The position numbers were made by a program, and so were the translations under genes. A stretch of 64,000 nt of DNA from Oceanospirillum maris DSM 6286. Lineage in GTDB: Bacteria > Pseudomonadota > Gammaproteobacteria > Pseudomonadales > Halomonadaceae. The notes below the pieces were generated by a model that saw only the letters and a list, made by a program, of their open reading frames with translations, made no database searches and was not told the DNA's origin. Where the stretch lies: assembly GCF_000422865.1 (NCBI RefSeq), contig NZ_KE383936.1, positions 1 through 64,000 on the forward strand, given 5' to 3'. Shown piece after piece: positions 10,386-57,269 of this stretch; position 1 is the stretch's first letter; every line of letters starts with the position of its first letter.

Positions 10386-11689
10386 GTCTGGCCGAATTTA
10401 CCGATCAATGGTTAAGTGCGATAGCCCCACAAATAAGCGAAGGGTCGGGTTGGTTAACCGACTTACGCCAAGGTGCTGTTGAACAGTTTGCTACTTTGGG
10501 CTTGCCCCATGCCCGCCTAGAAAACTGGAAATACACCGATGTTAAAGCACTGGCTAAGCGTCAGTTCTCATTGCCAAACGGGCAGGCAGATGCTGTAACC
10601 TTAATAAAAGAGAGTAGTCTGGGACTGGATGGGATTCGTCTGGTATTCGTCGACGGCATTTTCTCTGAACAAGCATCCACGCTTAATAGTTTGCCACAAG
10701 GTGTGCAGGTATTGCCTTTGGCTAAAAATGCTAATGCAGCTAAGCCGTTATTAGGGCAGGTTGCAGCGGCTAACTTTAGCGGCTTTACCGCTTTAAACCT
10801 TGCGGGCTGGCAGGACGGCGTGCTGATCGACTTAGCTGCTAACGCACGATTAGAGCAACCGGTCTATTTACAGTTTGTGGCGACCGAGCAGGAAAACCCT
10901 GTGCTGGTTCAGCCCCGGATTTTGATCAAAGCGGGTACTTATGCCGAAGCCACCGTGGTTGAGCATTATGCCGGTGCGGATGATGCCGCGAGCTTAACCA
11001 ATGCGGTCACCGAAGTGGAATTAGCCGATGGCGCTAATATTACCCACTACAAACTGCAGCAGGAAAGCAGCAAGCAATACCATATCGCTAGCATGCATGT
11101 GCAGCAGCAACGTGATAGCCGCTTTACGTCCCATAATGTTTGTTTGGGTGGCAAGCTGGCCCGTCAAGATATTCAGGTTGAACTGAACGGCGAAGGCGCT
11201 GAGGTAAACCTAAACGGTTTGTACTTAGGTAATGCCCGACAGCATCTGGATAACCATACGTTGGTGAACCATAACGCGCCGCATACCAACAGTCATGAAG
11301 ACTACAAAGGTATTTTAAACGACCGCTCCCGTGGTGTCTTTAATGGCCGTGCCGTTGTGCATAAAAATGCACAAAAGATTGAAGCTCATCAGTCTAATGC
11401 CAACCTGTTGCTGTCTGATAAAGCTGAAATTGATACCAAGCCAGAGCTGGAAATTTACGCCGATGATGTGAAGTGCTCCCACGGTAGCACCACCGGACAG
11501 TTGGATGAGAATGCTCTGTTTGCCCTGCGCTCCCGTGGTCTAGGTGAAGAGATGGCCCGTGGCCTGCTAACGCTGGCGTTTGCCAATGAGGTGATCGACC
11601 GTATCGAGATTCCGGCAGTACATGACCGTATCGAAGATGCTGTGGCCGGTCGTCTGCCGGAGAAATTCAACCTGAAAGGCCTTGTGTAA
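10382..11689 (+). CDS. sufD: Fe-S cluster assembly protein SufD
   Basis: 435-residue SufB-like partner that completes the SufBC2D scaffold. The C-terminal half has the SufB/SufD beta-helix signature ([19 protein letters not shown], about residues 330-350) and the conserved [13 protein letters not shown] stretch. Start chosen at the ATG at 10382, overlapping the sufC stop by four bases and preceded by GGAGG; an upstream in-frame GTG/TTG start would add only eight residues inside sufC. Confidence 0.95.
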
Positions 11690-11712
11690 ACGAGGCCGGT
11701 GCGATTGAGAGA

Positions 11713-13002
11713 ATGCCTGAGATGAATGTCCCTGTGAATGCTTATACCGCTTCTGGCTCTGATAAAATGCAGGCTGAAGCGGAACTGGCCGCTTATATGC
11801 TGGAACTGCGCCAAGAGTTTCCGATTCTTCAGCGTACCGTACACGGCAAGCCGTTGGTCTATTTCGATAATGGTGCCACGGTGCAGAAACCGGAGGCGGT
11901 GATCGAAAGTATGAACCGCTATTACCGTGAGCTGAACGCTAATATTCATCGGGGCGTGCATTATCTATCCGGTGAAGCCACGGATGCCTACGAGCAGGCA
12001 CGGGAGAAAGTGCGTCAGTTTATTAATGCTCGTTCTAGCAAAGAGATTATCTTTGTTCGTGGCACGACAGAAGGCATCAATCTCGTCGCTAACACCTTTG
12101 GCCGACAGTTACAGGCGGGGGATGAAGTGATCGTCTCCATGATGGAGCACCACGCTAATATCGTTCCTTGGCAGATTCTGCGTGATCAGCTGGGTATTGT
12201 GCTTAAAGTGGCACCGGTGGATGAAGATGGCGAGCTGGATATGGCGGCACTGAACGCCATGATTAGCGCAAAAACCAAGCTGATCTCGGTGACTCATGTT
12301 TCTAACGCTCTAGGCACTATCAATCCGGTGAAGCAGATTGTAAAACTAGCACACCTGCATGAGATCCCGGTATTGCTGGACGGTGCTCAGGCCGTGCCGC
12401 ACCTTAAGGTGGATGTTCAGGCGCTGGACTGTGATTTCTATGCCTTCTCTGCCCATAAAATGTATGGCCCGACCGGTATCGGCGTGCTATATGGCAAAGA
12501 AGCCTTGTTAGAGTCACTGCCTGTTTGGCAGGGCGGCGGCGATATGATCGACCATGTGAGTTTTGAAAAAACCACCTACGCCGGTTTACCCCACAAGTTT
12601 GAAGCGGGAACGCCCGCCATCGCAGAAGGAATCGGTTTAGGTGTCGCCTGTGACTGGTTGCTTAATGCTGATCTAGATAAAATTGCGGCTTGGGAAGAGA
12701 TTCTGCTTAAGTATGCGACGGAACAGATGCAGCAGATACCGGGAATGCGTATTCTTGGTAATGCTGAACACAAAGCGGGGGTGATCTCCTTTGTTATCGA
12801 TGGTGTTCATGCTCAGGATATTGGTGTCTTAATTGATCAGCTGGGTGTTGCCATTCGCACCGGCCATCACTGTGCTATGCCGGTACTGCATCACTTTGGT
12901 GTGGATGCCACCGCAAGAGCCTCCTTTGCTTTGTACAATACCAAAGACGAGATCGATATCTTTATTGCGGCTCTGAACCGCGCGCGGGACATGTTGCTCT
13001 AA
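11713..13002 (+). CDS. sufS: Cysteine desulfurase SufS
   Basis: 429-residue PLP enzyme that takes sulfur from L-cysteine, leaving alanine, and passes it to the SUF scaffold. PLP-binding Lys249 sits in F-S-A-H-K-M-Y-G-P-T-G, the persulfide Cys387 in R-T-G-H-H-C-A-M-P, and the group II N-terminal motif Y-F-D-N-G-A-T-V-Q-K-P is present. The N-terminus has about 30 extra residues compared with E. coli SufS; ATG 11722 or 11767 are other possible starts. It lies 23 bases after sufD and 11 bases before sufT, so it belongs to the same operon. No SufE or SufU partner is encoded nearby. Confidence 0.95.
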   Translation: MPEMNVPVNAYTASGSDKMQAEAELAAYMLELRQEFPILQRTVHGKPLVYFDNGATVQKPEAVIESMNRYYRELNANIHRGVHYLSGEATDAYEQAREKVRQFINARSSKEIIFVRGTTEGINLVANTFGRQLQAGDEVIVSMMEHHANIVPWQILRDQLGIVLKVAPVDEDGELDMAALNAMISAKTKLISVTHVSNALGTINPVKQIVKLAHLHEIPVLLDGAQAVPHLKVDVQALDCDFYAFSAHKMYGPTGIGVLYGKEALLESLPVWQGGGDMIDHVSFEKTTYAGLPHKFEAGTPAIAEGIGLGVACDWLLNADLDKIAAWEEILLKYATEQMQQIPGMRILGNAEHKAGVISFVIDGVHAQDIGVLIDQLGVAIRTGHHCAMPVLHHFGVDATARASFALYNTKDEIDIFIAALNRARDMLL

Positions 13003-30094: not shown

Positions 30095-30301
30095 CATCTA
30101 CACTTATTCTTGTTATTTCTATGCATATTTATTCATATAAAACTAATACATGAACAGCGTTGTGATATAGAATCAACTGATAAGAAAAATAATTAAGTAC
30201 AAGTGCATCCAACCAAATGTCAAAGAGTATTGTTACTGTACCCCTTGCAGGAAACTCTATGAAATTAAGCAGATAAAATATCAACTATTTAGGCCGCTAA
30301 T
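30095..30301 (+). other. Leader region of the second chemoreceptor, no gene seen
   Basis: AT-rich stretch between the symporter terminator and the chemoreceptor start (total gap from 29985 is 317 bases). It presumably holds the receptor promoter; no motif strong enough to call was seen. Confidence 0.4.
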
Positions 30302-32395
30302 ATGAAAATTAAGACCCGTATTGCTTTAGCCACTGGCGCCTGTTTAACCTTATCCTCTATAACGCTTCTAGCTGCTTTTGCTTGGAAAAATAGCGAGGTT
30401 GAAGGTAAAACAGAAGAACTTGTTATCGAAGAACTAACCCTTAAAGCCCAAGCGCAGCTAGCGGCCTCTGCCGCCGCAGAAGCTGGTAAAACTGAAATTG
30501 AATTAAGCCGCGCGTTATCTATTGCCACGGGATTGGCGGGCACAACGGGTAGCTTTGTTGCCCAGCAGGGTGCGGATACTGATCGACAGATGTTTTATCA
30601 ATACTCCCGAGATGTTCTCGTACAAAATAAAGCGACTGTGATGGGGACCTTTATCGCTTGGGAGAAAAATGCAGTAAACCCTGATCACCTGTTCCGAGGG
30701 GCGATGCACACCCATGCAAACGGACAATTCGCACCCTACTGGTTTCAAAATGCTGATGGCAGTATTGGCTATCGAACCTTAGGATTGGACTCTGTTGAAA
30801 AAGCCATTGCTGCAGGTGATCATTCCGGTGATTGGTATTTATGCCCTATTAATACTCAGAAGAATTGCTTGGTTGAGCCCTACTCTTGGAAAGTTGGTAA
30901 TAAGACGGTTATCGGCACTTCGCTAACATCACCGGTTGTGGTCGAGGGTAAGGTGATTGGTATGACGGGTGTTGATATCGAGCTAGGCTTTTTAGAAGAG
31001 CTGGCTAAAAGTGCGGATCAGGCGCTTTACTCAGGCTACGGTCAAGTCTTTCTGTTGAGCCATAAAGGTCTTGTTGCTGCAGATTCTGACGGTCAATTAA
31101 CGCTTGGTAAACCTTATAATGGTCGTGAGAAATCATTCTTACTGAAGCAAGTGGCATCAGGTCAGGCGGTAACTCAACAAATGACTGACAGCTTCTGGTC
31201 TGTGCAGCCGATTCAACTATCCGGCGTTTCGACCCCTTGGGCGGTGATTATTCGCCAAGATACTGCCGTCGTTTTAGAGGGTGCTAAAGCGGTTGAAGAT
31301 TCTATGGGGCGCCAATTCCGAGAAAGCTTAGTGACAACCGTTATTATTGGATTGTTGGTAACCGCAGGGGGGATTATTGTCCTTATGTTGATCGCTCAAG
31401 GGATTGCTGCACCGATACGTAAAGCAGCCAATATGATTAATCAATTAGCCTCCCAAGATGGCGATTTAACCCAAAGGTTGAATGTTAATCGCAGCGATGA
31501 AGTGGGTGATTTGGCTGTAGGCATTGATGCTTTTATTGAAAAAACTCACAGCATCGTCCGGGATATTGCCTCTGAAATGGGTAATGTTGAAGGATCTGCT
31601 CGCCGTGCCGCAGATATATCCAATAGCAGTACTCAAGGAATAGAAAAACAGCGGGCTGAAGTGGATCAGATTGCCACGGCTATTAATCAGATGTCGGCCT
31701 CTGCTGGAGAAGTTGCGCAAATTGCAACGACAACGGCGACAGCATCCAGTGAAGCGAAAAGCTCGATCGATAGTAGTGCGGCCAATGTTCAGCGTTCAGC
31801 AGTATCGATTAAAGCTTTGTCTGAGCAGGTTGCGAGTACGTCAGAATTAATGGATTTACTGGCCCAAGACAGCCAAAACATTAGCCTGATTGTTGAATCA
31901 ATTCAGGGGATTTCAGAGCAGACCAATTTGCTGGCTTTGAACGCTGCGATTGAAGCGGCTCGGGCTGGTGAAACAGGGCGAGGCTTTGCGGTTGTTGCGG
32001 ATGAAGTACGTAATCTAGCCTCAAAAACTCAGGCATCCACCGAAGAGATTCAAGCGCTGATGAATCAGTTGCAGACGCGTACCAAAGAATCACTTGCAGC
32101 CATGCGTCGAGGTAATGAACAGTCCGATGAGTGCTTGAGTATGGCTGAGGAAGCGTCTAATCATTTGCAGCAAGTTGCAGGCGCTATATCTGAAATTGAT
32201 AACATGACCACGCAGATGGCAAGTGTTGTTGAAGAGCAGCGTGCGGTAACTGAAGATATCACCCGCAATATTGTGAATATCAGTGATGAAACAAGCCTTG
32301 TGGCCGATGGGGCGATTTCTGCAAATAATGAAAGCCAATCATTGCTTGAGTTGGTTAAAAAGCTGGAGAGTCAGCTAAACCGTTTTCATTATTAG
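30302..32395 (+). CDS. Methyl-accepting chemotaxis protein, double-Cache type
   Basis: 697-residue chemoreceptor with TM1 (about 8-27), a periplasmic dCache-like domain (about 30-340), TM2 (about 343-365, [17 protein letters not shown]), HAMP and a signalling coiled coil whose tip reads [19 protein letters not shown]. It is organised like the receptor at 4982 and shares the cysteine pair Y-L-C-P...N-C-L-V-E-P in the sensor. No C-terminal pentapeptide. ATG at 30302. It is a single-gene unit; ligand unknown. Confidence 0.92.
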
Positions 32396-51983: not shown

Positions 51984-53549
51984 TTAATGGTTATGCAAAC
52001 GCGTGTCTAGGGCACCTCGGGTCATATCGCCAAAAACATGCAGACGATCAACACTCAGATCGCGCTCTTTGGCGGATAAGAGATTAAGCTGACGTACCAT
52101 ATTCAGTGTATCTTGATTTAATGGTGGGGTTTCATACTCGCCATTTTTGGGTGGCCAGATATCCGAGTCCAGTTTGCGCTGCCCCAGCCAAGCATTGGCG
52201 ACCAGTACCTCCGCTGTTTCTGCCATATCTTTATAGGGATCAGCTCCTTTTTCTTTCTGGAAGTACATGGCATCACTTGTTTTTCCGGCTGGCCGAGAGA
52301 GATCGCCCATTCGGGACATAAATACCAGATCCCGGGCTTCAGCGTTGTTTCTTACCGCATCGATAGCGGCCAAAGCATCGCTGTGTTCTGTCAGATCAAG
52401 CGGTTCGAGGTAATCGCTGCCAAACAAGTGCTCCATGCCCTGCACGGTAATTTCCAGATAGGCGCGCTGGTTACTGCGGTCCAGATTGTTTAGCGTGCTG
52501 GTCATATTCAACAGCTGCTCATCGCTGAACTCATAGTTATCCAGCAGGTCCAGCGTATCTTTAACCATATCTCGTCCAATGGAGTAGCTGTCATTATCCA
52601 GCCAAGCCACGTTGGCTGCTGAGCCGTCATTCAGGTTGCTGTTGTTATCGGCTTTTATTTTTAGGTCAAGCATGTGCCTGGTTTTATCAGCGGTCTCGGC
52701 AATAAATTGCAGCAAACCCTCTTTTGCTTCCGGTGAGAACGCTTTGTTTTTCAGCATTTCGTAGCTGCGTACCCCTAACTCTTCATCCAGAATATAAACC
52801 TGCATTAAGGGGATTTTTTGCGTCTCATCAACACTGTCCAGATTGTTCATCAGGCTTTGATGGTCTTTGGTGTTGTGCAGGGCATTCAGAAATGTGCTCA
52901 GGTTATCTATTGAGCTGTTTTTGTTTTGGGGTAGGCGAAACAGTTCTTTTCGGCTGTAGGTGTCCGGTTTTTCTCTTGCTTGAACCTGTTCTGTGTAGGG
53001 CTGCACCTGCTCAGCATAGGCATGAGCCTGATCGAGTATCTGTTGGCGTAGTGCTGGCTCGCTGTCAGCCAGAGTCTGCATTACATCCCGAATGTGGATA
53101 AGGTTCTGAAGATCATAGCTTTTTGGATAGAGATAACCATAGTGACCCTCCGATTGCATGGCAATCATAATATCGGTGAACTGGGACAGCTCTTCGTCGC
53201 TGAGATTTTCCGCCAATTGGAAAATATCATCCCCTTTCAGTAGGTTCTTGTAATCACTGATATTGCTGATAATGGTGTCCCGTTGTTCCGGTGACATGCG
53301 CTCCAGTAAGGCATCGGCTTTGACTTTCTGTTCGCCATGAAAAAGGTCGTCATAGGTCGCCTTGTCAATAGGCACTAACTTGGCACCATCTTCAATACCG
53401 AGTTCCCGGGCTTGTGCTTTGGTGTTTTCTCGGGCGCTCTGCACTGCCTGACGGACAGATTCAGCAGGTAATGAGGTGTTTTGTGTTCCGGTCGTGGCGG
53501 TGTTTGAGGGGCTCAAAAAACGGCCGAAATAATGGCTGGTATTCAACAT
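51984..53549 (-). CDS. Uncharacterised protein, paralogue A of a tandem pair
   Basis: 521 residues, not recognised. It lacks signal peptide and membrane segments. Residues about 8-50 are rich in S, T, N, Q and A; the rest appears alpha-helical and acidic. It is paralogous to the gene at 53766, with near-identical blocks around 70-185 (G-E-Q-K-V-K-A-D-A-L-L-E-R-M-S-P-E-Q, and D-I-M-I-A-M-Q-S-E-G-H-Y-G-Y) and 225-295 (D-S-V-D-E-T-Q-K-I-P-L-M-Q-V-Y-I-L-D-E-E-L), and diverged stretches between them. Both end with A-K-E-R-D-L-S-(V/I)-D-R-L-H. Start ATG at 53549. Surrounded by oxyR and ahpFC. No catalytic motif recognised; a structural, effector-like or regulatory role is possible. Confidence 0.85.
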   Translation of the reverse strand: MLNTSHYFGRFLSPSNTATTGTQNTSLPAESVRQAVQSARENTKAQARELGIEDGAKLVPIDKATYDDLFHGEQKVKADALLERMSPEQRDTIISNISDYKNLLKGDDIFQLAENLSDEELSQFTDIMIAMQSEGHYGYLYPKSYDLQNLIHIRDVMQTLADSEPALRQQILDQAHAYAEQVQPYTEQVQAREKPDTYSRKELFRLPQNKNSSIDNLSTFLNALHNTKDHQSLMNNLDSVDETQKIPLMQVYILDEELGVRSYEMLKNKAFSPEAKEGLLQFIAETADKTRHMLDLKIKADNNSNLNDGSAANVAWLDNDSYSIGRDMVKDTLDLLDNYEFSDEQLLNMTSTLNNLDRSNQRAYLEITVQGMEHLFGSDYLEPLDLTEHSDALAAIDAVRNNAEARDLVFMSRMGDLSRPAGKTSDAMYFQKEKGADPYKDMAETAEVLVANAWLGQRKLDSDIWPPKNGEYETPPLNQDTLNMVRQLNLLSAKERDLSVDRLHVFGDMTRGALDTRLHNH

Positions 53550-53623
53550 GGTCTAACATCCCTGTGGTTGGTACTAAACATCGAGTACTTTTTAAAAAGC
53601 TAAGTGATCTTTAAAAACTGAGT

Positions 53624-53651
53624 GGCCATTAACAGTGGCTTGTTAATGGCC
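53624..53651. promoter_or_regulatory. Perfect inverted repeat upstream of paralogue A
   Basis: 11-base arms GGCCATTAACA / TGTTAATGGCC with a 6-base spacer, 75 bases before the start codon on the minus strand. It may be an operator or a leader hairpin. A further palindrome, CTTTTTAAAAAG, lies at 53589-53600. Confidence 0.55.
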
Positions 53652-53725
53652 CGCTTAAGCAAGATGATCCTATTACCGTCACCGTTAAAGAAGCCCAGAT
53701 GATCCGGCCTCATTGAAAATATGCT

Positions 53726-53750
53726 AAAGGGCTGCTCAAGCTGCCCTTTT
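53726..53750. terminator. Hairpin between the tandem paralogues
   Basis: AAAGGGC/GCCCTTT with inner GC/GC and loop TCAA, 16 bases after the stop of paralogue B. The longer T-run is on the plus strand, whereas the genes read leftward, so it is at best a weak terminator for paralogue B. Confidence 0.45.
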
Positions 53751-53765
53751 TTATACTTCTTGTTT

Positions 53766-55337
53766 TTAGCGCTGATTTTCAGCTGATTCCGTCAGACGGG
53801 GATCTAGCATTTCCTGACTTAGAGCACTGAAAGTGTGTAGCCGGTCGATGCTTAGGTCGCGCTCTTTCGCTGAGAGTTCATGTAACTGGCGCAGTATCTT
53901 GATAGTATCGAAGTTCATCATGGGGGCTTGATAACTATCATCAGCCGTCTCTATAGGTGGCTCTACACCGTATCTGTGCTGACTGAGCCAGGCATGGGAT
54001 ACCAACGCTTCTGCGGTTTGGCTCATATCTTTGGCTGAGTCCTCGTTTTGCTTCGCGAAATATTGGCCGGCCTTCAGATACTCGTCATATTCTTTGTATT
54101 CCCCCAGTCGGGACAGCATAACCAGATTGCGGGCATCGCTATTACCTCGCACTGAGGCAATGGCTGACAATGCTGCTTTATGGTCAGCCATATCCACAGG
54201 TTCCTCGTTGTGATCTTTACCAAACAGGTGCCCCATGCCCTGAACGGTAATTTCGATATAAGCCCTTTGATTACTGCGATCCAGCCTATTAAGTTCGCCG
54301 GTCATGTTTAGTAACTGATCGTCGGTAAATCGATAATTATCCAGCAGATCTAAAGTGTCTTCGATCATCCCAGTGCCTACGCCGTAATAGTGGTCATCTT
54401 GGTCCAGCTTTAAGGAGGTGTTTTCCAGATCTTTGGAGCTATTGACTAATTGCCAGCCTTTGGTGTACAGCAAGGTTTTTTCGGCGGTCTCGGCAATAAA
54501 TTGCAGCAATCCCTCTTTTGCTTCCGGTGAGAAAGCTTTGTTTTTCAGCATCTGGTGGCTGCGTACCGCTAACTCTTCATCCAGGATATAAACCTGCATT
54601 AAGGGGATTTTTTGCGTCTCATCAACACTGTCCAGATTGTTCATCAGGCTCTGATGATCTTTGACGTTGTGCAGGGTATTCAGAAATGTTTTCAGGTTAT
54701 CCATTGAGCTGTTTTTGGGCGGGTTGAGTAGCTCTTTCCGGCTGTAGGTATCGGGTTTTTCCGTTAGTTGTACCTGTTCCGCGTAGATGTGGGCCTGGTC
54801 GAGAATCTGTTGGCGCAGTGATGGCTTACTGTCAGCCAGAGTCTGCATCACATCCCGAATGTGGATAGGGCCCTGAAAATCAGAGCTTTTTGGATAGATA
54901 TAACCATAGTGACCCTCCGATTGCATGGCAATCATAATATCGGTGAACTGGGACACTTCTTCGTCGCTGAGGTTTTCAGCCAATTGGAAAATATCATCGT
55001 CTTTCAGGAGGCTTACGTAATCACCGATATTGCTGATGATAAAGTCCTGTTGTTCCGGTGACATGCGCTCCAGTAAGGCATCGGCTTTGACTTTCTGTTC
55101 GCCGCGAAACAGGTCGTTATAACCGGGTTTATAAGTTGTCCAGTCAATAGCCTCTAACTTGGCACCGTCTTCAATGCCTGGCTGCTGGGGTTGTGCTATT
55201 TTACCTTCACTGGCTTGTTGTGCCGCCTGCTGGATCTTGCTTTGGACATTATTATGGTCAGTGCTTTGCGGGCTGACTGGTGTGGCGCTGGTTGACGTGT
55301 TAATAAAACGATTAAAATAATGAGTGGTATTAAACAT
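53766..55337 (-). CDS. Uncharacterised protein, paralogue B of a tandem pair
   Basis: 523 residues, not recognised; paralogue of the gene at 51984, with which it is collinear over the full length. It starts M-F-N-T-T-H-Y-F-N-R-F, has a Q/S/A-rich N-terminal 50 residues, and shows no signal peptide, membrane helix or known catalytic motif. Blocks of near identity with paralogue A (also at DNA level, for example 54490-54670 against 52700-52880) alternate with diverged regions, for example about 295-325 and 395-425. ATG at 55337, with AGGGAAGG upstream on its strand. The 216-base gap to paralogue A holds two inverted repeats. Confidence 0.85.
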   Translation of the reverse strand: MFNTTHYFNRFINTSTSATPVSPQSTDHNNVQSKIQQAAQQASEGKIAQPQQPGIEDGAKLEAIDWTTYKPGYNDLFRGEQKVKADALLERMSPEQQDFIISNIGDYVSLLKDDDIFQLAENLSDEEVSQFTDIMIAMQSEGHYGYIYPKSSDFQGPIHIRDVMQTLADSKPSLRQQILDQAHIYAEQVQLTEKPDTYSRKELLNPPKNSSMDNLKTFLNTLHNVKDHQSLMNNLDSVDETQKIPLMQVYILDEELAVRSHQMLKNKAFSPEAKEGLLQFIAETAEKTLLYTKGWQLVNSSKDLENTSLKLDQDDHYYGVGTGMIEDTLDLLDNYRFTDDQLLNMTGELNRLDRSNQRAYIEITVQGMGHLFGKDHNEEPVDMADHKAALSAIASVRGNSDARNLVMLSRLGEYKEYDEYLKAGQYFAKQNEDSAKDMSQTAEALVSHAWLSQHRYGVEPPIETADDSYQAPMMNFDTIKILRQLHELSAKERDLSIDRLHTFSALSQEMLDPRLTESAENQR

Positions 55338-55405: not shown

Positions 55406-55537
55406 ATGATTTTTTGTCATTTAGCCTGTTTTACCCAAGCTTTACCTTCTGTCTGTGGACGGTAGGTTTTTGCATGACAAAGAATCCTATCGGCAGTAGC
55501 TAAAAAAGCTTTAGTGCAGATACTCAGGATGACTCAG

Positions 55538-55576
55538 CAAAAAAAGCCGGAGCATCTCAACAGAGATATTCCGGCT
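55538..55576 (-). terminator. Rho-independent terminator of ahpF
   Basis: On the minus strand AGCCGGA and TCCGGCT, with inner ATCTC/GAGAT, form a stem followed by a run of seven T. It ends the leftward ahpC-ahpF transcription. Confidence 0.9.
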
Positions 55577-55667: not shown

Positions 55668-57269
55668 TCACAGAGCTTCTGGCTCCGGTGTGCGAATCAG
55701 GTAATCGAAGGCTCCCAGTGCGGCATTGGCTCCATCGCCCATGGCGATAATGATTTGCTTGTAAGGCGAGTCGGTAACATCTCCGGCGGCGAAAACACCG
55801 GGTAAATTGGTTTCTCCACGACGACCGACGACAATCTCACCTCTTGAGGTTAGATCAATAGTATGGCTTTCGTGTCCTTCCAGAGATTTTAGAAACTCGG
55901 TATTAGGGACTAAACCAATTTGTACAAAGATACCTGCTAGCTCTATCTGTTTAGTTTCACCAGAAACACGGTCAATATAGTTCAAGCCGGTTACTCTCTG
56001 ACCATCGCCAATGACCTCTGTTGTTTGAGCCTGCATAATAATGTCGATATTACCCATAGAACGAGCTTTTTTCTGCAGAACATCGTCGGCCCGTAGCACG
56101 TCACTAAACTCTAAAACGGTAACATGCTCTACGATACCCGCCAGATCAATGGCGGCTTCTATACCGGAATTACCACCGCCTATTACGGCAACACGCTTGC
56201 CTTTGAACAGTGGGCCGTCACAGTGTGGGCAATAGGCAACGCCTTTATTACGATATTCCTGCTCACCGGGTACATTCATCTCACGCCAGCGTGCTCCGGT
56301 TGCTAGTAATATACTGCGACTTTTTAGCGTTGCGCCATTTTCAAGGGTTACCTCAATCAGGCCGCCGATCTGTTTTGCACCAATAACATCGGTAACCGAT
56401 TGATTGGACATAATATCAACATCGTACTCACGTACATGCTCTTCCAATTGGGCAACCAGTTTTGGGCCTTCGGTTTCTTTAACCGAGATAAAATTCTCAA
56501 TGGCTAAGGTATCACCGACCTGGCCACCAAAACGGGTGGTCACTAAACCTGTGCGTAGACCCTTGCGGGCAGTATAAATTGCAGCGGCAGAACCGGCAGG
56601 GCCAGCACCAACGACAAGCATATCGTAGGCTTCTTTAGCGTTTAGGCTTTCAGCTTGGCGCTCTGCTGCGCCGGTATCCAGCTTGGCCAGAATCTCTGCC
56701 AAAGTAGTGCGACCTTGGCTGAAATTTTCACCATTTAGGTAAACCGAAGGCACCGCCATAATATTACGCTGGGTGACCTCTTCCTGGTTTAAGCCGCCGT
56801 CGATCATAACGTGATGAATATTCGGGTTGATCACCGCCATCATATTAAGTGCCTGCACTACGTCTGGGCAGTTTTGACAGCTTAGGGAAATATAGGTCTC
56901 AAAGTTGTACTCGCCTTTTAGATGTCTAATTTGCTCAATAACGTCTTCATCCAATTTCATTGGATGGCCGCCGCTGTGTAGAAGGGCTAGTACCAGAGAG
57001 GTAAATTCATGGCCCATAGGGATACCGGCAAAGCGCAGCTCACGGCCTGTTTCTGCTGAACGCACGATTAAAGTTGGGCGGCGTTCATGGGCGTGGTGTT
57101 CACTTGCTGCAACAATACGAACCTTGTCAGACAAGGCGGCGATCTCTTGCGCTAATGTTGTTAATTCGATTGATTTTGCACTGTCGTCGGATACGGTGAT
57201 CAGCTCAACAGGGCTTTTTAGATGTTGCAGATAACCTTGCAGTTGTTGCTTTAGCGTTGCGTCTAACAT
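55668..57269 (-). CDS. ahpF: Alkyl hydroperoxide reductase subunit F
   Basis: 533-residue flavoprotein that passes electrons from NAD(P)H to AhpC. The N-terminal domain is two thioredoxin-like folds with the redox pair Cys131-x-x-Cys134 in S-C-Q-N-C-P. The thioredoxin-reductase-like part has the FAD motif G-A-G-P-A-G (221-226), the active disulfide Cys347-P-H-Cys350 and the NAD(P)H motif G-G-G-N-S-G. ATG at 57269, after AGGAGAGCGACC. It lies 160 bases downstream of ahpC on the same strand, with a stem-loop between them. Confidence 0.96.

What the first reader, a model, noticed from the sequence alone, without database searches (positions are those of the whole stretch)
51984..55337. Tandem pair of an unrecognised protein family embedded in the peroxide-defence locus
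Two collinear 521/523-residue paralogues with no recognisable domain, signal or membrane segment sit between oxyR and ahpF/ahpC. Both have a polar S/T/N/Q-rich N-terminal 50 residues and a helical acidic body, which could fit an effector-like, scaffold or stress protein. Retention of two copies and the unusual location make this the strongest candidate for an undescribed system.
Basis: partly seen in the sequence, partly recalled or inferred. Interest (0 to 1): 0.75.

Follow-up and report, generated by a model that had tools for sequence, protein, structure and literature searches.

The report
Flagellum-linked orphan protein pair
Two related, unrecognised proteins beside a marine bacterium's peroxide-defence genes belong to a family whose genes mostly carry a flagellum-type switch, so they probably work with the flagellum and their place among the peroxide genes looks incidental.

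Summary
Both ORFs are real and where stated (521/523 aa, minus strand, 61-65% identical), with no match at E 0.001 in Pfam, NCBIfam, PHROGs, PADLOC or PDB. OxyR, AhpF and AhpC are confirmed beside them. The peroxide link fails: of 10 genomes found with the family, the gene lies beside ahpF in 3 and near oxyR in 2, and a terminator hairpin separates it from ahpF. Adjacent tandem copies occur only here.

The recurring feature is a sigma28 (FliA) flagellar promoter, TAAAGTTT-N11-GCCGATAA with 2 of 16 mismatches, upstream of 9 of 12 family genes and of 0 of 160 control genes. In its own genome copy 2's site is one of four exact core matches; the others precede flagellin, flgM and motA. Ten of 11 proteins lack cysteine over the compared length, and their N-termini are polar, as in FlgM and flagellin. 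The 12 genomes tested have one FlhA-type protein each, so no injectisome.

Best reading: an undescribed, lineage-restricted family of the late flagellar regulon, probably exported through the flagellum, like Campylobacter Feds. Export is inferred; the role outside the cell is unknown. Copy 1, G002 and G003 lack the promoter; copy 1 looks like a recently exchanged coding cassette.

The parts
53766..55337 (-). Copy 2 (c2), 523 aa, family member with the sigma28-type promoter
51984..53549 (-). Copy 1 (c1), 521 aa, no sigma28-type site in 600 nt upstream; 93.5% DNA identity to the O. linum gene
55487..55513 (-). sigma28 (FliA)-type promoter TAAAGCTT-N11-GCCGATAG, 149 nt before the c2 start codon
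   Evidence: consensus in print PMC2859248 (passages)
55188..55337 (-). Codons 1-50 of c2: polar N-terminus, candidate export signal (inferred)
53400..53549 (-). Codons 1-50 of c1: polar N-terminus, candidate export signal (inferred)
55545..55576 (-). Terminator hairpin between ahpF and c2
   Evidence: -20.5 kcal/mol, z -5.2
53726..53750 (-). Hairpin just after c2, resembles the one after the O. linum gene
53624..53651 (-). Second terminator-like hairpin between c2 and c1
   Evidence: z -4.1

Best explanation
The pair belongs to an undescribed protein family, found so far in Oceanospirillum and one other genus, that is part of the late (sigma28/FliA) flagellar regulon. When FliA is released from FlgM (general knowledge of flagellar assembly, recalled), it transcribes c2 together with flagellin, motA and flgM. 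The acidic, cysteine-poor protein is then most likely exported through the flagellar type III apparatus by its polar N-terminus, to act on the filament or outside the cell. Supported by sequence statistics: the promoter link, the cysteine depletion, the N-terminal composition. Inferred: real transcription by FliA, export, and any activity. My odds: about 0.9 for sigma28 control of the family as a whole, about 0.6 for export given that. For c1 itself sigma28 control is not supported.
For: (1) 9 of 12 family genes have a site with 2 of 16 mismatches to TAAAGTTT-n11-GCCGATAA within 300 nt upstream; in 606,856 positions of these loci, family regions included, there are 9 such sites in all, so each is a family site; other spacings from 5 to 18 score far worse (summed mismatches 38 at spacing 11, 60-77 elsewhere). 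(2) 0 of 160 control genes have such a site; the best control, 3 mismatches, is a chemotaxis receptor. (3) Own genome: 4 exact matches to TAAAGNNT-N11-GCCGATA, preceding c2, a flagellin, flgM and motA. (4) Six genomes of the second genus: 7 of 9 sites of a two-box pattern precede family genes, one flgM, one a DUF5610 protein; reversed-pattern control 1. (5) 10 of 11 homologues without cysteine, controls 5 of 62. (6) N-terminal polarity like FlgM and flagellin. (7) FliA above cut-off in 12 of 12 genomes, one FHIPEP in 12 of 12.
Against: c1, G002 and G003 have no such promoter (best 7, 6 and 7 mismatches; also none in 600 nt). The nine positives fall into about five promoter groups, so they are not nine independent cases. 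N-terminal polarity is not specific: FlgM of G002 ranks only 27th of 166 controls and one control ORF reaches 44%. The O. linum protein was counted over 521 codons; its frame runs on past that point and that extension holds cysteine. 5 of 62 controls also lack cysteine. No chaperone gene was recognised nearby (by eye). Two of six Oceanospirillum genomes with FliA lack the family. No expression or secretion data.
Confidence: 0.55

Rival explanations
1. A sigma28-dependent protein that stays in the cytoplasm, for example a motility or chemotaxis modulator or an adaptor to the motor.
For: Same promoter evidence; sigma28 also drives non-exported genes such as motA and, probably, a chemotaxis receptor here; no export data.
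Against: Cysteine depletion and polar N-terminus fit export better, but neither is decisive.
Confidence: 0.27
2. A peroxide-stress protein of the OxyR/AhpCF locus.
For: Beside ahpF in 3 of 10 genomes and near oxyR in 2.
Against: Elsewhere in 7 of 10 genomes; terminator after ahpF; flagellar promoter; almost no cysteine. I did not scan for OxyR binding sites.
Confidence: 0.03
3. An effector or toxin of another secretion system (type I or VI), with the flagellar promoter a coincidence or a cue.
For: Polar N-terminus, no known fold, patchy distribution, recent exchange of c1.
Against: No immunity gene or secretion module recognised beside the copies when I read the flanking ORFs by eye; I did not search these genomes for type I or VI systems.
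Confidence: 0.06
4. c1 is a decaying or silent leftover of gene exchange, and only c2 is functional.
For: No sigma28 site in 600 nt, hairpins between c2 and c1; remnants of a second copy in G627.
Against: c1 is an intact 521-codon frame. Its 88% third-position identity to O. linum means recent arrival, so there was little time for decay either way.
Confidence: 0.35

Closest known systems
[quoted passage not shown] seen only as described in PMC5223770 (passages), the original paper not held
   Same: Non-flagellar proteins dependent on sigma28; Feds are secreted through the flagellum, which I propose here
   Different: No sequence comparison made; a different bacterial class; secretion not shown here
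FlgM and flagellin of the same genomes
   Same: Same promoter type, polar N-terminus, little or no cysteine
   Different: No FlgM or flagellin domain in the family proteins; 4-6 times longer than FlgM
DUF5610 (PF18433) proteins of the second genus
   Same: sigma28-type site (1-3 mismatches) and no cysteine in 6 of 6
   Different: No DUF5610 match in this family; no DUF5610 in 6 of 6 Oceanospirillum genomes

Membership tests
sigma28 (FliA) regulon gene | sigma28 promoter upstream | tested here: met
   9 of 12 family genes incl. c2; not met for c1, G002, G003
sigma28 (FliA) regulon gene | FliA present in the genome | tested here: met
   12 of 12 genomes above cut-off
sigma28 (FliA) regulon gene | Transcription lost without FliA | not testable with these tools
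   needs a fliA mutant
Flagellar type III export substrate (Fed-like) | N-terminus that directs export | tested here: inconclusive
   composition like FlgM and flagellin, not specific
Flagellar type III export substrate (Fed-like) | Secretion dependent on the flagellar export apparatus | not testable with these tools
   needs secretome of an export mutant
OxyR peroxide regulon | Conserved linkage to oxyR/ahpCF | tested here: not met
   beside ahpF in 3 of 10 genomes, near oxyR in 2 of 10
OxyR peroxide regulon | OxyR binding site or peroxide induction | not tested
   no OxyR-site scan and no expression data
Injectisome type III effector | Injectisome export gate (second FHIPEP protein) in the genome | tested here: not met
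   exactly one FHIPEP in 12 of 12 genomes

The most novel reading that the evidence does not exclude
The tandem pair is a variation system for a protein made, and perhaps exported, with the flagellum: c2 is the sigma28-driven expression site and c1 a promoterless donor cassette. Coding sequence moves between strains and between the two positions: c1 has 88% third-position identity to the O. linum gene against 36-59% for five neighbours, and codons 41-280 of c1 and c2 are a near-identical block between diverged ends. In O. linum a c1-type coding sequence sits behind a sigma28 promoter and before a c2-like hairpin.
Probability: 0.1. Interest if true: 0.72.

Novelty: new member of a known kind. 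Interest (0 to 1): 0.48.

Why it matters
It turns an orphan pair that looked like stress genes into a testable flagellar hypothesis. Cargo made with flagellin and exported by the flagellum is, in the papers that I saw, described mostly from Campylobacter. A family with this signature in marine bacteria, and a second unrelated family (DUF5610) with the same signature, suggest that such cargo may be more widespread, and that a sigma28 box before a cysteine-free protein with a polar N-terminus is a usable search key.

Tried and rejected
Peroxide or stress role: rejected on neighbourhood, terminator and promoter. Known family: nothing at E 0.001; weak hits scattered and inconsistent between members (NCBIfam only for the two window proteins). 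Viral origin: 66 pattern matches in viral contigs, no relative. Internal repeats: six profile comparisons between column ranges of A4, none convincing.

Rows dropped as false before counting: G785 and G781 (59-position matches inside ORFs that read as chemotaxis receptors, by eye); G775 (reads as ClpP) and five hits of genus g347, two of five read, both glutamine synthetase by eye. G798's copy is split into two ORFs: only its upstream DNA was counted. Truncated remnants in G627 were not counted as copies.

Post hoc choices: the sigma28 site was first seen by eye. Searches used the consensus as recalled, afterwards found in print. The patterns were shaped after sites had been seen. The c2/O. 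linum upstream likeness exceeds 200 shuffles with lenient gaps (131.5 against a maximum of 114) but not with strict scoring (133 of 500 shuffles reach it).

Full report
WHAT IS THERE. Both ORFs exist as described, are 61-65% identical, and match no Pfam or NCBIfam family at E 0.001; c1 has no PDB match better than E 0.11. With nine homologues added, Pfam, PADLOC, PHROGs and PDB still gave only weak, inconsistent hits (best E 0.0081, 0.0076, 0.018, 0.21). OxyR, AhpF and AhpC are confirmed beside them.

WHERE THE FAMILY OCCURS. In the genus, 4 of 6 genomes carry it; 4 of 58 relatives, the same four; 1 of 369 genomes drawn across the class, the own one; 3 of 390 drawn across the order, or 9 of 390 with a wider profile, of which six weak hits (E 0.0018-0.0067) are dropped as false. 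Of 56 relatives of G607, 35 of them in its genus, 7 matched and 5 stand after two chemotaxis-receptor hits are dropped. A scan of named genomes returned only O. linum. The second genus is not named by the tools; it reminded me of Marinomonas, which is recall. Altogether I used 12 genes in 10 genomes: two here; one each in O. linum, G002, G003, G627, G786, G788, G789 and G798 (the last split into two ORFs); two in G607, about 11 kb apart. G627 also has truncated remnants of a second copy.

THE LOCATION IS NOT CONSERVED. Beside ahpF: this genome, O. linum and G002 (3 of 10); near oxyR: 2 of 10 (in G002 the other side holds glycine-cleavage genes). In the other 7 the gene lies elsewhere (neighbours named by eye). 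One exception to a clean picture: a peroxiredoxin-like ORF about 7 kb from the G788 copy. A terminator hairpin follows ahpF in the three linked genomes (z -5.2, -4.8, -3.7), so the family gene looks like its own transcription unit.

THE PROMOTER. Reading the upstream DNA of 11 homologues suggested a sigma28 promoter. Scoring TAAAGTTT-n11-GCCGATAA (in print: PMC2859248, passages) over 300 nt upstream, 9 of 12 family genes have a site with 2 mismatches of 16; c1, G002 and G003 have 7, 6 and 7 at best. Nine such sites exist in the 606,856 positions searched, family regions included. Of 160 control genes in the same loci none has 2 or fewer and one has 3; that one is a methyl-accepting chemotaxis receptor. 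In the window, 4 sites have at most 3 mismatches where shuffles average 0.71, and c2's is the best. In the own genome four exact core matches precede c2, a flagellin (its first codons read before a stretch of N), flgM and motA; with one mismatch allowed there are 24 sites against 7 for the reversed pattern, so weaker sites are partly chance. In six genomes of the second genus, 7 of 9 sites of a two-box pattern precede family genes. By spacer sequence the nine positives fall into about five groups: the boxes stay while spacers differ, but the cases are not independent.

EXPORT IS INFERRED. Ten of 11 homologues have no cysteine over the length compared and one has one; the O. linum frame continues beyond that length and has cysteine there. 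Of 62 control ORFs of at least 400 aa five have none, and by eye these five start like membrane or exported proteins. Six FlgM and three flagellin ORFs had none; a fourth flagellin ORF had one, in the stretch before its likely start. The first 50 residues hold 34-52% S/T/N/Q, against 28-46% in five FlgM and three flagellins and a mean of 21.5% in 166 controls. All 12 genomes tested have FliA and a single FHIPEP protein, two of these without the family. In C. jejuni the amino-termini of flagellar and several non-flagellar proteins drive export through a flagellar apparatus (PMC2764114, passages), and Feds depend on sigma28 for production and secretion (PMC5223770, passages). I propose the same logic here; nothing in my data shows secretion.

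THE TANDEM PAIR. c1 has no sigma28 site in 600 nt, and two hairpins stand between c2 and c1, so c1 may be silent, read through, or driven by another promoter. c1 and the O. linum gene share 93.5% of DNA and 88% of third positions, while oxyR, putA, ahpC, ahpF and a GGDEF gene of the same two genomes share 36-59% of third positions. This points to recent exchange; similarity ends about 20 nt before the start codon. c1 and c2 are a mosaic: third-position identity 61-97% over codons 41-280, 28-56% elsewhere, as gene conversion would leave. The hairpin after c2 resembles the one after the O. linum gene (0 of 500 shuffles); upstream regions of c2 and O. linum are alike with lenient but not strict scoring. 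I offer the cassette reading as the novel case only.

STRUCTURE AND LITERATURE. Two AlphaFold2 jobs on three sequences gave low confidence and no fold conclusion. Eight paper searches, of which I saw listings, and passages of four papers, showed nothing that I recognised as this family; DUF5610 gave 0 papers; Oceanospirillum with flagellar, hypothetical protein and secreted gave 0. The library holds open-licence papers only.

Noticed in passing
L109-L114 (six genomes of the second genus): Proteins with DUF5610 (PF18433), unrelated to this family, have a sigma28-type site upstream (1-3 mismatches), no cysteine in 6 of 6 and, by eye, a polar N-terminus: a second candidate for flagellum-coexpressed cargo.
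   Followed up: partly
window 51984-53549 and L006 10001-11563: c1 and the O. linum gene share 88% of third positions while five neighbouring genes share 36-59%: recent exchange limited to about one gene.
   Followed up: partly
L006 10001-11938: In O. linum the frame runs past the c1 stop position to 11938, overlapping the convergent ACT-type ORF at 11656-12180: altered 3' end.
   Followed up: no
window 30274-32395: A sigma28-like site (3 mismatches) directly before a methyl-accepting chemotaxis receptor.
   Followed up: no
L017 with L043 and L044 (G627 C32:251715-259783): Truncated remnants of a second family copy, on the same contig as the intact one: loss of extra copies.
   Followed up: no
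L006 8057-9622 against window 55668-57269: O. linum AhpF is 65% identical to the window's although AhpC, OxyR and PutA are 88-93%; G002's AhpF is 87% identical, so O. linum ahpF may have been replaced.
   Followed up: no
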